Shown in pieces: positions 60,282 through 64,000 of a stretch of DNA of 64,000 nt; position 1 is the first letter of the stretch, and each line of letters starts with the position of its first letter. The notes under the pieces were generated by a model that did not search any database, was not told the origin of the DNA, and saw only the letters and a program-made list of their open reading frames with translations. The position numbers were made by a program, and so were the translations under genes. The stretch is from Capnocytophaga periodontitidis (GTDB lineage Bacteria; Bacteroidota; Bacteroidia; Flavobacteriales; Flavobacteriaceae), in contig NZ_JAEFDB010000003.1 of NCBI RefSeq assembly GCF_016126015.1, positions 62,001-126,000 on the forward strand. Reading direction: 5' to 3'.

Positions 60282-61613
60282 ATGTTAACCGCAATTTCCC
60301 CCATTGATGGTCGTTATGCCGATAAAACGACCTCCCTTGTGCCTTTCTTTTCCGAAATGGCACTCATTCGTTATCGCGTACAAGTGGAAGTAGAGTACTT
60401 CATCGCGCTCTGTGAACTCCCCTTGCCTCAACTCGCTGCCTTTCCTAAGGAAAAATACACCGATTTGAGAAAACTCTACCAAAATTTTACCGAAGAGGAA
60501 GCTCTAAAAGTAAAAGAAATAGAGCAAACTACCAATCACGATGTGAAAGCGGTAGAATACTTTATAAAAGAAGCCTTTGATTACTTACAACTGCAACCCT
60601 ATAAGGAGTTTATCCACTTTGGTCTTACCTCTCAGGATATCAACAATACCGCTATTCCGCTTAGCATCAAGGAAGCCGTACAACAAGTGTATTTACCTGC
60701 CTTAGAGCAATTACTCGGAAAACTGAGAAGTTTAGTAGTCCAATGGAAAGATGTGCCATTGTTAGCACGCACTCACGGTCAGCCGGCATCTCCTACGCGT
60801 TTGGGCAAGGAATTCGAGGTGTTTGTCGTTCGTATGGAACAGCAGTTACAAACCCTTATCGCAGTGCCTTATGCTGCCAAATTTGGGGGAGCAACCGGTA
60901 ACTACAACGCTCATAAAGTAGCCTATCCTAATATCGATTGGAAGGCTTTCGGTACCCGCTTTGTTGAGGAAATATTAGTGTTACACCACTCATTCCCTAC
61001 TACCCAAATTGAGCATTACGACCATTTAGCTGCTCTTTTCGATGCTCTCAAACGCATCAATACGATTCTCATCGATTTGAACCGCGATATTTGGACGTAT
61101 ATCTCTATGGATTACTTCAAACAACAGATAAAAGCAGGCGAGGTAGGCTCTTCGGCTATGCCTCATAAGGTAAATCCTATTGATTTTGAAAACTCTGAAG
61201 GTAATTTAGGTATTGCCAACGCTCTTTTAGAGCATCTATCGGTGAAATTGCCTATTTCCCGCCTGCAGCGCGACCTCACAGATAGTACAGTATTGCGCAA
61301 TGTAGGGGTGCCTTTTGGTCATATACTCATCGCCTTGCAATCTACCCTCAAAGGACTCAACAAACTGCTTTTAAACGAAGATAAAATCCGCCAAGATTTA
61401 CAAGACCATTGGGCAGTAGTAGCCGAGGCTATCCAAACGATTTTGCGTCGTGAAGGCTATCCTAATCCGTATGAAGCCCTCAAAGCCCTTACGCGTACCA
61501 ATACCGCTATCACTGCCGAGACTATCAGCAACTTCATTGATACCTTGGAAGTAAGTGAAGATGTAAAGGCAGAACTAAAAGTCATCACCCCCGAGAACTA
61601 TACAGGAGTTTAG
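60282..61613 (+). CDS. purB: Adenylosuccinate lyase
   Basis: The 443-residue protein starts TAISPIDGRYADKTTSLVPF and has the signature GSSAMPHKVNPIDFENSEGN and the active-site HFGLTSQDINNTAIP and RTHGQPASPTRLGKE regions. It makes AMP and an IMP precursor in purine synthesis. Standard length. It lies 47 bases after holB and is followed by a terminator-type hairpin. Confidence 0.97.
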   Translation: MLTAISPIDGRYADKTTSLVPFFSEMALIRYRVQVEVEYFIALCELPLPQLAAFPKEKYTDLRKLYQNFTEEEALKVKEIEQTTNHDVKAVEYFIKEAFDYLQLQPYKEFIHFGLTSQDINNTAIPLSIKEAVQQVYLPALEQLLGKLRSLVVQWKDVPLLARTHGQPASPTRLGKEFEVFVVRMEQQLQTLIAVPYAAKFGGATGNYNAHKVAYPNIDWKAFGTRFVEEILVLHHSFPTTQIEHYDHLAALFDALKRINTILIDLNRDIWTYISMDYFKQQIKAGEVGSSAMPHKVNPIDFENSEGNLGIANALLEHLSVKLPISRLQRDLTDSTVLRNVGVPFGHILIALQSTLKGLNKLLLNEDKIRQDLQDHWAVVAEAIQTILRREGYPNPYEALKALTRTNTAITAETISNFIDTLEVSEDVKAELKVITPENYTGV

Positions 61614-61791: not shown

Positions 61792-63044
61792 TTATTGGAA
61801 TAGTTGTATCAAATTTTCTATGACCCCGAAGTTGGTTTGCTTAGCAAGGGCGCGTAAGCGCTCTTTTAAGGTCAAACGCTTGCTCAACTCTCCTTTTTTA
61901 CAGCGCTTCAAATCGATGAGAAGTTGCTGAATTTCTTCATATATCCTTGTTTTCCAATGCGGCTGACGTTTAGAAACAAGCTCAGGAATTGAAGGGTCAA
62001 ACAAACGCAACATATCCACCGTTTGGGCAGCAAATTGAGTGTCGCGCTCATACACAAAACGCTGCGACATATTTTCTACAGGATCTTTCGTTAGAAAAAG
62101 TTCTTCGCTAAAAGTACTATAAATCTCTATTGCAAAATCCACTTTCCCCATCCATATAAGGGCATTACACAGTTTAGAAATGAGAATATCAGGAGTGTTA
62201 AATTCCTCATCAAACACGTGTAAGGGTTTGGCGCGTAGGTTGCGATGTAAAGCAACTTCAGCCACGCGAATCGCTTCTTGTTCATTGTTGTTCAAGTAAG
62301 CCAATACTACTTTGGCTATGGTATAACGCGTTTCAGGATAATGAAAGAAACTATCAGGATAATCTCGCCATACCGATTCGATGTATTTATCAGCTTCTGC
62401 AGTATATTTTTCTACAAAACCCCCCCCCCCCCCCCCCCCCATTTTGTACTGCAAAATACACCATAAGCAAGAAAAGAATTTTGGCATACTCTCAAGTGTT
62501 CCAAAGGTTGAGTGGCGAGATAGGTTTCGATGAGGTGAACATAACTCGCTTGTGCCATATAATCGTAGTACGGGAACCAAGGGTAAAGCGACTGAGTGAT
62601 TTTTGGAGTGTTTTTATAGCGTTCCAAAAACGAATAGGCATAAGGTAAATCGTTTAAAATGATAGGAGCGTAAGCCTCGTGAGTGTCACGCAGTTTAACG
62701 TCGAAAAAACTCGCGCCCGAGAAAGCAATAGTGTCGTAGAAAGAGTTGATAACCTCGCGCAGTTGTGTAGGGGTAGCAGGGGTTGTGTTGTTGCAAAAGC
62801 TCTGCCAGTCAGCAAAACCAATGTAGTTACACAGCAAGTTTAAGCTTGCAGTGCTAAGTTGTTTCTCCTTGTCAATTTTTCCAAAGAAGCGGCGCAAGGT
62901 TTGGGTAGATAGACGCGTTTTTTCCGATAATTCTTCAAAGTCAGCTATAGAAGTAACTGTTTTTCCAAAGGAGCGGTTTACTTCGTTTTGTAAGCGGTTA
63001 ATGTGTTGTTTATAAGCGTTATCAGTAGCTAAATCATTTGTCAT
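61792..63044 (-). CDS. Phase-variable HTH-type protein, off in this sequence
   Basis: The gene starts MTNDLATDNAYKQHINRLQN at 63044. Its N-terminus has an HTH-like region (RLSTQTLRRFFGKIDKEKQL). After about 202 residues (CSTKW) a 21-base G tract (62440-62420) throws the frame into GVL and a stop at 62412. The frame VEKYTAEADKYIESVWRDYP continues beyond the tract in another phase for 208 codons to 61792. With 19 or 22 G the parts join into about 417 residues; with 20 or 21 they do not. The C-terminal half is helical, with ALHRNLRAKPLHVFDEEFNT. The function is unknown; the likely role is regulatory. Confidence 0.7.
62420..62440. repeat. 21-base C tract (G tract on the coding strand)
   Basis: An uninterrupted run of 21 C lies within the coding region of the gene above. 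Such tracts change length by slipped-strand mispairing. It is the only homopolymer of this length in the window. Confidence 0.95.
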
Positions 63045-63074
63045 TTTCCACGTCAAGTATTTATAATAGGGGTG

Positions 63075-63178
63075 CAAATATACACAAAAAACACCAAACT
63101 GTACAAAATTGTACAGAAATTTTATACACAATTGTACAAAATTGGACTTTTGTATTTTTTGGAGCGATTATACTTTTG
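63075..63178. promoter_or_regulatory. Divergent promoters with two palindromic operators
   Basis: For the minus gene: CAAATATA (63075-63082) and CAAA (63104-63107), spacer 21. For the plus operon: TTTG (63149-63152), spacer 18, TACTTTTG (63171-63178). A perfect palindrome TGTACAAAATTGTACA (63100-63115) covers the minus -33 element, and a second, imperfect copy TGTACAAAATTGGACT (63133-63148) abuts the plus -33 element. Their starts are 33 bases apart, about three helical turns. Confidence 0.65.
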
Positions 63179-63221
63179 CCGCTGAAAAAAGATAACAACA
63201 GAAACCGAAAAATAATAAATA

Positions 63222-63476
63222 ATGTCAGTAGAATATTACAGAAAACAAATCATCGACCTCAGAGCGCGATTAGCCAAAGAGAAAGAAAACAAGAAGAAGG
63301 ACAATGCTTATTATGGCGATATGGCAAAAAAAGCTTCTTCTCCTAGTAGTAAAGCTTCTTATAAAAAGACTAAAGTAGATAAAGCCGCTTCTCACGACCG
63401 TGCTATCGAAAGTCTCAAAAAACAAATAGAGCGTTCTAAAGAAAGTCTTGCTCGCGAAAAGGCAAGAAAAAAATAA
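63222..63476 (+). CDS. Small basic coiled-coil protein
   Basis: The 84-residue protein (MSVEYYRKQIIDLRARLAKE) is Lys/Glu-rich and predicted helical at both ends, with a Ser-rich middle (KKASSPSSKASYKK). Its first line, with SVEYY and a heptad-like helix, resembles small proteins I associate with defence loci, but I cannot prove this. Promoter at 63149-63178; 29 bases before the next gene. Confidence 0.65.
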   Translation: MSVEYYRKQIIDLRARLAKEKENKKKDNAYYGDMAKKASSPSSKASYKKTKVDKAASHDRAIESLKKQIERSKESLAREKARKK

Positions 63477-63505: not shown

Positions 63506-63898
63506 ATGATTAAGCAATACAAAGAATTGGTAGCTACTGATTTGTATATCGTGGCTATCTACGACAACAAGTCTATCGACGTGTACAACCGCTACGAAAA
63601 CGCTAAAGGTGCTTTGCGTCAAATCGCTGATGAAAACAACTTCAAGTATGACGAATCTTGGAATACTCGTCAGTTTGGCAAAAAATTAATTGATGCCCTT
63701 GGAGGCGGAGCTCCTGCTATTGCCGATGAAACTTACTGTGTGTATACCGATGCCAAAGGTACCGTTATCTGTGGAAGCAAGTTTGAAGGCAGTACTAAAG
63801 AAGGTTTGCGTACCGTAGCTGCTAAGTACAAAATTAAGTACGACGAGGCTTGGAACACTCAACAGTTCGGTAAAAAAGTAATTGAAGCTTTGCGATAA
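63506..63898 (+). CDS. Protein with two related repeats
   Basis: The 130-residue protein has two copies of a unit of about 60 residues: GALRQIADENNFKYDESWNT then RQFGKKLIDAL, and GLRTVAAKYKIKYDEAWNTQ then QFGKKVIEAL. Each is preceded by a beta-strand segment (YIVAIYDNKSIDVYN; YCVYTDAKGTVICG). No known domain is recognised. It is the second gene of the operon facing the phase-variable gene. Confidence 0.7.
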   Translation: MIKQYKELVATDLYIVAIYDNKSIDVYNRYENAKGALRQIADENNFKYDESWNTRQFGKKLIDALGGGAPAIADETYCVYTDAKGTVICGSKFEGSTKEGLRTVAAKYKIKYDEAWNTQQFGKKVIEALR

Positions 63899-63986: not shown

Positions 63987-64000
63987 ATGGCAAAAAAAGC
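63987..64000 (+). CDS. Start of a further gene, cut by window edge
   Basis: ATG GCA AAA AAA GC (MAKKA) begins here after an A-rich leader, 88 bases after the repeat protein gene. Only five codons are visible, so no identity can be given. Confidence 0.45.

What the first reader, a model, noticed from the sequence alone, without database searches (positions are those of the whole stretch)
61792..63044. Phase-variable gene switched by a 21-base G tract
Seen: two frames of 202 and 208 codons meet at an uninterrupted G21 tract and would form one protein of about 417 residues only if the tract had 19 or 22 G (any length equal to 1 modulo 3). With the 21 G here the upstream part ends in GVL and stops at 62412. 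Known: long G/C tracts within genes are classic slipped-strand switches. Inference: this is an on/off switch for a protein with an HTH-like N-terminus. A phase-variable regulator would switch other genes with it.
Basis: partly seen in the sequence, partly recalled or inferred. Interest (0 to 1): 0.85.

Follow-up and report, generated by a model that had tools for sequence, protein, structure and literature searches.

The report
G-tract switch beside swappable defence genes
An oral bacterium appears to carry a gene-control protein that is switched on and off by a slippery run of 21 G's and that sits back to back with exchangeable gene sets, several resembling virus-defence genes, so cells of one population may differ at random in whether those genes are active.

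Summary
In detail: G21 (- strand, 62420-62440) is the only G run of 12 or more in the 3.23-Mb assembly, and it splits one gene (61792-63044) into two frames. The gene is probably not a dead relic: both halves show purifying selection, an intact single-frame copy exists in Capnocytophaga sputigena NCTC11653, and two other Capnocytophaga species have G13 (frame broken) and G9 (in frame) at the same place. A length-switched gene is well supported; within-strain variation could not be tested. The protein is most likely a local transcription regulator; its Cro/C1-type HTH has only weak profile support. It is divergently transcribed from a variable operon. The intergenic control region (18-bp inverted repeat, -7 boxes both ways) is conserved at all four loci found, while the operon behind it differs: PADLOC candidate phage-defence genes PDC-M57A/B at three, a porin-like gene plus an Mrr-type endonuclease at the fourth. 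Best reading: a phase-variable regulator with a conserved operator/promoter at which accessory, probably anti-phage, cassettes are exchanged. Poly-G phase variation and phase-variable defence (Pgl) are known; I saw no switched dedicated regulator of an exchangeable cassette in the listings of my ten literature searches. DNA binding, direction of control and defence function are inferred. Structure prediction could not be run.

The parts
62420..62440 (-). G21 homopolymer tract inside the gene (C21 on + strand)
   Evidence: Read directly; only G run of 12 or more in the assembly; G13 and G9 at the same place in two other species
62412..63044 (-). Upstream frame: N-terminal half with HTH-like domain, 210 aa, stopping just after the tract
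   Evidence: dN/dS 0.068 against the intact C. sputigena copy
61792..62418 (-). Downstream frame: C-terminal half, 208 residues plus stop, no family match
   Evidence: dN/dS 0.137 against the intact copy
63045..63221 (.). Divergent intergenic control region, conserved in 4 of 4 Capnocytophaga regulator loci
   Evidence: local alignment scores above all 300 shuffles for 6 of 6 Capnocytophaga pairs
63099..63116 (.). 18-bp inverted repeat (8-bp arms, 2-bp spacer): putative operator
   Evidence: I5; same letters in G018; imperfect counterparts (92%) in G009 (L019 10978-10997) and G001 (L020 898-917)
63132..63147 (.). Second operator-like site next to the operon promoter
   Evidence: this site (from which the pattern was taken) and 63099-63114 (1 mismatch) are the only sites in the assembly with 0-1 mismatch
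63148..63178 (+). Promoter-like element of the accessory operon: TTTTG, 18-base spacer, TACTTTTG (63171-63178)
   Evidence: TAnnTTTG consensus recalled for Bacteroidota. The -7 box is kept at all four loci, the TTTTG only in the window
63075..63082 (-). TATATTTG -7 box facing the regulator gene
63222..63476 (+). First ORF of the divergent accessory operon (84 aa, coiled-coil-like by eye)
63506..63898 (+). Second ORF of the accessory operon (130 aa)
63987..64000 (+). Start of the third ORF (167 aa, running out of the window). The operon continues on the contig to a TerB-like ORF and PDC-M57A/PDC-M57B (C23:128106-129180)

Best explanation
The gene is a contingency locus encoding a local transcription regulator. 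Slippage of the G tract during replication changes the reading frame, so the regulator is either full length or cut just past its middle. Step 1, frame switching by tract length: strongly inferred from comparison, not observed in reads. Step 2, the full-length protein binds the inverted repeat(s) between the two divergent promoters and controls the operon that starts at 63222, and probably its own gene: inferred from the conserved control region, the divergent layout and an HTH-like domain. Repression is my guess for the sign, because the second site abuts the -33 region. Step 3, the regulator with its control region is a fixed platform, and the operon behind it is exchanged between species: shown by synteny for the window against C. 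sputigena, and by different cargo at four loci. Step 4, the cargo is mostly anti-phage or conflict genes, so the switch gives clonal cells different immunity states: inferred from PADLOC candidate-family matches only. In the sequenced state the full-length protein is OFF.
For: Only long G run in the assembly. Intact homologue in C. sputigena NCTC11653, 96% and 98% identical in the two halves. Tract at the same site as G13 (frame broken, G009) and G9 (in frame, G001). Purifying selection in both halves: dN/dS 0.068 and 0.137, against 0.034 for purB. Control region conserved in 6 of 6 pairs of the four Capnocytophaga loci, scores 287-665 against shuffle maxima of 172-326. The inverted repeat is exact in the window and G018 and 92% symmetrical in G009 and G001. 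A second site at 1 mismatch from the first lies in the same region and none that close elsewhere in the assembly. Homology of window and C. sputigena stops at the 5' edge of the operon and resumes beyond it. PDC-M57A/B beside 3 of 4 regulator loci, although PDC-M57A is in only 4 of 20 genus genomes and 2 of 395 class genomes, own included. The fourth locus has a porin-like gene and then an Mrr-type endonuclease. Of the 8 G runs of 11 or more in 20 genus genomes, several others also sit at frame breaks or before promoter boxes.
Against: No within-strain length variation could be seen. The C. sputigena copy has an interrupted, presumably stable tract, so switching is not universal. G001's copy is split over two contig ends. 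The HTH call rests on weak profile hits, and there is no solved relative and no model. No DNA-binding or expression data. PDC-M57 is only a candidate defence family; I found no paper naming it. G009 has the regulator without PDC-M57A, and PDC-M57A occurs without a regulator beside it in G012, in G379 and in a second copy in G001. The link of regulator and M57 presence has Fisher p 0.013 on 20 non-independent species. Sites with 2-3 mismatches to the operator pattern occur all over the assembly. Part of the conserved control region is a generic promoter that also precedes a greA-like gene in two species. The -33 element is not kept letter by letter.
Confidence: 0.65

Rival explanations
1. Recent pseudogene: the tract expanded by chance, the gene is dead in this strain, and no switching takes place.
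For: Frame broken here and in G009, gene split in G001; only 1 of 4 copies is plainly intact. dN/dS averages over the whole time since the species parted, so a very recent death would not show.
Against: dN/dS of 0.068 and 0.137 on the two sides of the break; both halves are otherwise open; a tract at the same site in three species; control region conserved.
Confidence: 0.12
2. Truncated and full-length forms are both functional: the tract toggles between a full-length regulator and a short HTH-only form (210 aa), perhaps plus a separately translated C-terminal half from the ATG abutting the tract (62441-62443), rather than on/off.
For: The N-terminal half keeps the HTH-like domain; in the window the abutting ATG is in frame with the C-terminal half; stop and ATG lie about 30 bases apart, close enough for re-initiation (inference).
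Against: That ATG is absent in G009 and G001, so it is not a conserved feature; no expression data.
Confidence: 0.2
3. Transcriptional slippage on the G tract makes a mixture of full-length and short protein from one DNA state, so it is recoding and not phase variation.
For: A 21-base homopolymer is prone to polymerase slippage (general knowledge); the gene shows selection although out of frame.
Against: A DNA tract of 21 is far longer than recoding needs and is expected to be unstable itself (general knowledge); two of the other long tracts of the genus lie just before promoter boxes, where only DNA length should matter.
Confidence: 0.08
4. The protein is switched but does not control the divergent operon; its neighbour genes are an unrelated hot spot.
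For: No binding data; weak HTH evidence; variable cargo could be a simple insertion hot spot.
Against: Control region with inverted repeat conserved at four loci with different cargo and, for G009 and G001, different flanking genes; a distant homologue in another genus (G300) is also divergent from a relative of a window cassette gene.
Confidence: 0.25

Closest known systems
Poly-G/C simple-sequence contingency loci (Campylobacter, Neisseria, Helicobacter)
   Same: Long homopolymer inside a reading frame; different lengths and frame states in relatives; selection kept on both sides
   Different: In a Bacteroidota genus for which the listings I saw held no such report; the gene is a putative regulator and not a surface enzyme; within-strain variation not shown
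Pgl (type 2 BREX) of Streptomyces coelicolor, phase variable through a G tract in pglX (PMC4365076, passages read)
   Same: G-tract slippage switching a phage-defence locus
   Different: There the tract is in the methyltransferase; here in a putative regulator beside the cassette; no BREX match among the 19 neighbour and cassette proteins scanned
BrxR regulators of BREX and other defence systems (PMC9122589, passages read); CapW (recalled)
   Same: Dedicated DNA-binding regulator next to a defence operon, binding near a promoter
   Different: BrxR is wHTH-WYL-WCX; no WYL match here; this one carries a hypermutable tract
PADLOC candidate system PDC-M57 (M57A = DUF6884; M57B GIY-YIG-like, E 0.014, below Pfam's cut-off)
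   Same: The divergent operon contains M57A and M57B (E 2.7e-63 and 7.6e-103)
   Different: I found no description of PDC-M57 as regulated or phase variable (no paper); the regulator itself matches no PADLOC model

Membership tests
Phase-variable (contingency) gene by simple-sequence slippage | Homopolymer far longer than chance inside a reading frame | tested here: met
Phase-variable (contingency) gene by simple-sequence slippage | Relatives with an intact frame and different tract lengths | tested here: met
   G018 intact (interrupted tract), G009 G13 broken, G001 G9 in frame; between species only
Phase-variable (contingency) gene by simple-sequence slippage | Selection maintained on both sides of the tract | tested here: met
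   dN/dS 0.068 and 0.137 against G018
Phase-variable (contingency) gene by simple-sequence slippage | Reversible length change within one strain | not testable with these tools
   no reads, one genome per species
Cro/C1-type HTH transcription regulator | Recognisable HTH profile in the N-terminus | tested here: inconclusive
   HTH_26 in 2 of 18 homologous domains, best E 0.0019; the C. sputigena domain's own best match is another winged-helix model at E 0.0047, below cut-off; none for the window piece itself; nothing convincing in PDB
Cro/C1-type HTH transcription regulator | Symmetrical operator in its own promoter region | tested here: met
   inverted repeat in a conserved region; binding itself not testable
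BrxR/CapW (WYL) defence regulators | WYL domain | tested here: not met
   no WYL match in Pfam for the two halves or the intact copy
Pgl/BREX phase-variable defence | Tract in pglX, BREX genes around it | tested here: not met
   no BREX match among the 19 proteins scanned with PADLOC models
PDC-M57 candidate defence cassette (the cargo, not the regulator) | Adjacent M57A and M57B | tested here: met
   window genome, separate genes; G018 and G001, fused
PDC-M57 candidate defence cassette (the cargo, not the regulator) | Protects against phage | not testable with these tools
   candidate status only; no paper found under that name

The most novel reading that the evidence does not exclude
A 'plug-in' immunity switch: a hypermutable regulator gene plus its conserved operator/divergent promoter forms a fixed control socket into which unrelated anti-phage or conflict cassettes are exchanged, so any cassette that lands there at once becomes stochastically phase variable and the population hedges between protected and unprotected cells.
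Probability: 0.4. Interest if true: 0.8.

Novelty: new variant of a known kind. Interest (0 to 1): 0.62.

Why it matters
Phase variation usually switches one surface enzyme or one restriction component. A switched regulator sitting at a cassette-exchange site would let a bacterium put whatever defence genes it acquires under random on/off control, which bears on why costly immune genes persist and on why clonal cultures differ in phage sensitivity. It also points to a poly-G contingency repertoire in Capnocytophaga, for which I saw no report in the listings of my searches, and it is directly testable by counting tract lengths and operon transcripts.

Tried and rejected
Family searches of the two halves in Pfam and NCBIfam gave nothing usable. 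PDB by sequence gave nothing for the intact homologue and nothing convincing for the profiles of alignments A3 and A4 (best E 0.048 and 0.006, unrelated molecules). PHROGs gave one weak family of unknown function. No homologue in plasmids, phages or viral contigs at the thresholds used, so there is no evidence that the regulator itself is mobile. A genome-wide regulon was considered and found no support, but it is not excluded: besides a third, 2-mismatch site in the same control region, there are 10 sites with 2 mismatches elsewhere; 6 lie inside ORFs and 4 between or beside ORFs (one, L096, just upstream of an ORF), and the 85 sites with 3 mismatches were not examined one by one. The distant homologues G300 and G285 do not share the control region, so I do not extend the operator claim beyond Capnocytophaga. 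Independent genes on both sides of the tract: rejected because C. sputigena has one uninterrupted frame. I checked whether G001's broken copy carries a known transposase at its contig end: Pfam found none in the 40-residue fragment, so a mobile element there is only a suspicion.

Structure prediction of the intact homologue was asked for 16 times and never accepted because the queue was full. The HTH and the fold of the C-terminal half therefore stay unmodelled.

Full report
WHAT IS THERE. On the - strand, 21 G stand at 62420-62440. The upstream frame starts at ATG 63044 and stops at 62412 (210 aa). The downstream frame is open from the tract to 61792. The tract is the only G run of 12 or more in the 3.23-Mb, 55-contig assembly, and the number of runs of 21 or more expected from base composition is 4e-9 to 1e-8. 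The neighbour on one side is purB (60282-61613).

WHICH ORGANISM. The C-terminal half found one record in the named genome collection, Capnocytophaga sputigena NCTC11653. G018 of the unnamed set has a contig of the same length (800,954 bases) and the gene at matching coordinates, so I take G018 to be that strain. The aligned blocks of window and G018 around the locus are 91.4-95.5% identical (8 blocks). The window is therefore from a Capnocytophaga close to C. sputigena; its own name was not shown.

INTACT AND SWITCHED RELATIVES. The N-terminal half has a match in 4 of 20 genomes of the genus, the own genome included. G018 has one uninterrupted frame across the homologous place, with the G run broken up by other bases. 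G009 has G13 and the frames do not agree. G001 has G9 and reads through, but its gene is split over two contig ends. So at one position, inside a Gly-rich stretch of low conservation between conserved blocks, there are G21, G13, G9 and an interrupted version. In the wider family, 21 of 299 genomes match a profile at E 1e-5 or better; the 20 outside the genus match only over 52-102 positions in the N-terminal 110. None of the 21 loci of these 20 genomes has a G or C run of 7 or more. As far as sampled, the tract is a Capnocytophaga feature.

NOT A PSEUDOGENE. Window against G018, Nei-Gojobori: N half dS 0.282, dN 0.019 (ratio 0.068); C half dS 0.090, dN 0.012 (ratio 0.137); purB 0.034 as yardstick. 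For the more distant pairs 7 of 8 comparisons have saturated synonymous values and give no ratio; the eighth gives 0.09. Both sides of the break are conserved, so the broken state is recent or transient. The threefold difference of dS between the halves is unexplained.

THE CONTROL REGION. The gene is divergent from an operon starting at 63222. The intergenic regions of the four Capnocytophaga loci align: 6 of 6 pairs score above every one of 300 dinucleotide shuffles (window-G009 317 against mean 134, maximum 187; window-G001 307 against mean 151, maximum 200). Of the 9 pairs that involve the distant homologues G300 and G285, none does. The shared part holds an 18-bp inverted repeat, CTGTACAA-AA-TTGTACAG at 63099-63116, with imperfect counterparts (92%) in G009 and G001, a second similar site at 63132-63147, and TAnnTTTG boxes facing both ways. 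That consensus is recalled knowledge of Bacteroidota promoters; the -33 element of the window is not kept letter by letter in the other three. With a pattern taken from the second site, 98 sites in the assembly match with up to 3 mismatches (35 for the reversed control pattern). Only two have 0 or 1 mismatch: the source site itself and the inverted repeat beside it. A search of 20 genus genomes with the region gave matches in 8: the four strong ones (E 1.3e-8 or better) are exactly the four regulator loci. The five weak ones (E 5e-4 to 3e-3) are a greA-like promoter in two species (G019, G006; name by eye), one place each in G015 and G007, and a piece near a second PDC-M57A copy in G001. So the right part of the block is partly a generic promoter.

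THE CARGO IS SWAPPED. Window and C. sputigena are collinear through purB, the regulator and the control region; homology stops at the 5' edge of the operon (L017:1190, L018:10166) and resumes beyond it. In the window's genome the operon has small ORFs of 84, 130 and 167 aa, a TerB-like ORF (E 0.013, below Pfam's cut-off), a 132-aa ORF resembling the 130-aa one by eye, PDC-M57A (DUF6884), PDC-M57B and a 168-aa ORF. C. sputigena has a fused M57A-B and a 184-aa ORF. G001 has a fused M57A-B followed by other genes. G009 has a porin-like gene (by eye), then an Mrr-type endonuclease. The genes on the regulator's far side also differ between G009, G001 and the window (by eye). PDC-M57A is found in 4 of 20 genus genomes at five places, three of them beside the regulator, and in 2 of 395 class genomes, own included. 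Co-occurrence Fisher p is 0.013, species not being independent. It occurs with no regulator seen beside it in G012, in a second copy in G001 and in G379, and G009 has the regulator without it. A distant 388-aa homologue in another genus (G300) is divergent from a gene related to the window's 167-aa ORF (BLASTP E 5e-13). That gene family elsewhere (G547) lies with a KAP NTPase and a TerB gene; it is rare, 2 of 295 class genomes with the own one. DUF6884 is described as distantly related to the DNA-binding protein YaaA (PMC11701544, passages read).

WHAT THE PROTEIN IS. The N-terminal 85 or so residues are a domain shared by other Bacteroidota proteins, including ones followed by an NTPase region that scores weakly as NACHT (E 0.0014, below cut-off). 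Of 18 such domains scanned, 2 match Pfam HTH_26 (Cro/C1 type, best E 0.0019). No convincing solved relative was found and no structure could be predicted because the queue stayed full. 'Regulator' is thus an inference from a weak HTH signal, the divergent layout and the conserved inverted repeat.

MECHANISM. Most likely slipped-strand mispairing moves the frame, giving full-length protein (ON) or a 210-aa truncated form (OFF, the sequenced state). The full-length protein acts at the inverted repeats on the divergent operon. The sign of control is unknown; repression is a guess. The truncated form might keep DNA binding, so the switch could be 'sensing against non-sensing' rather than on/off. 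In the window an ATG abutting the tract is in frame with the C half, but this ATG is absent in G009 and G001.

CONTEXT IN THE GENUS. Runs of 11 or more G occur 8 times in 20 genomes. All eight were read: two are this gene (G21, G13), one breaks an acyltransferase-like frame (G17, G014), two lie just upstream of a -7 box in G010 (G15 before a porin-like gene, G12 before a lipoprotein-like gene), one is in a SusC-like gene (G12, G004), one is near the end (G11, G002) and one near the start (G12, G004) of an open frame (gene names by eye). Poly-G contingency loci may thus be a habit of the genus.

LITERATURE. Ten searches of the held open library, of which I saw the listings only. 'Capnocytophaga' with 'phase variation': 6 papers, all listed, none on the subject by title and abstract start. 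Three further searches with Capnocytophaga among the terms showed 8 of 277, 8 of 23 and 10 of 58 papers, none on the subject by listing; the one whose passages I read is about a methyltransferase of Aeromonas (PMC10569733). 'PDC-M57': none. Searches on phase-variable regulators and defence showed 20 of 65 and 3 of 3 papers. Pgl phase variation by a G tract in pglX and BrxR were read in passages. 'Not reported' therefore means not in these listings.

VERDICT. The larger result is the conserved control socket with swapped, defence-like cargo. New variant of a known kind; the decisive data are read-level tract counts and operon expression by frame state.

Noticed in passing
L049, L052, L056, L061, L063, L069, L070, L074 (position about 1501); L135 for a G12: G9 runs (G12 in one) at what looks like the same in-frame place early in SusC/TonB-receptor-like genes of several Capnocytophaga species (8 of the 30 loci read, out of 76 matches; family name by eye): a possible second class of length-variable genes.
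   Followed up: partly
L137 1497-1511 and L141 1502-1513 (G010): G15 and G12 lie just upstream of a TACTTTTG -7 box, ahead of a porin-like and a lipoprotein-like gene: candidate promoter-spacing switches.
   Followed up: partly
L139 1495-1511 (G014): G17 at a frame break in an MBOAT/O-acyltransferase-like gene (family name from memory).
   Followed up: no
L066 about 1500 (G019): G10 between two overlapping frames that look like parts of a type I restriction-modification gene pair (name from memory).
   Followed up: no
G001:C17:1-283 and C13 end (L020, L021): The G001 copy of the regulator is split over two contig ends, as if by a repeated element; a short transposase-like fragment at the C17 end was not recognised by Pfam.
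   Followed up: partly
window 62441-62443, - strand: An ATG directly abutting the G tract is in frame with the C-terminal half in the sequenced state; not present in G009 or G001.
   Followed up: partly
window 61792-63044 against L018 10311-11561: Synonymous divergence from C. sputigena is three times higher in the N half (dS 0.28) than in the C half (0.09), purB lying at 0.23: perhaps recombination within the gene.
   Followed up: no
L117, L118, L119: The same N-terminal HTH-like domain occurs at the start of open frames of 823-876 aa with a P-loop, weakly NACHT-like region in other Bacteroidota (only L117 was scanned).
   Followed up: no
G001:C13:280888-280925 (L130): A short, weak match to the control region (E 0.003) near a second PDC-M57A gene, with a transposase-like fragment between them and no regulator.
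   Followed up: partly
L133 (G547): Cluster with KAP NTPase, TerB, an OmpA-domain gene related to the window's 167-aa ORF, and coiled-coil genes, next to an unrelated HTH gene: looks like a conflict or defence module.
   Followed up: no
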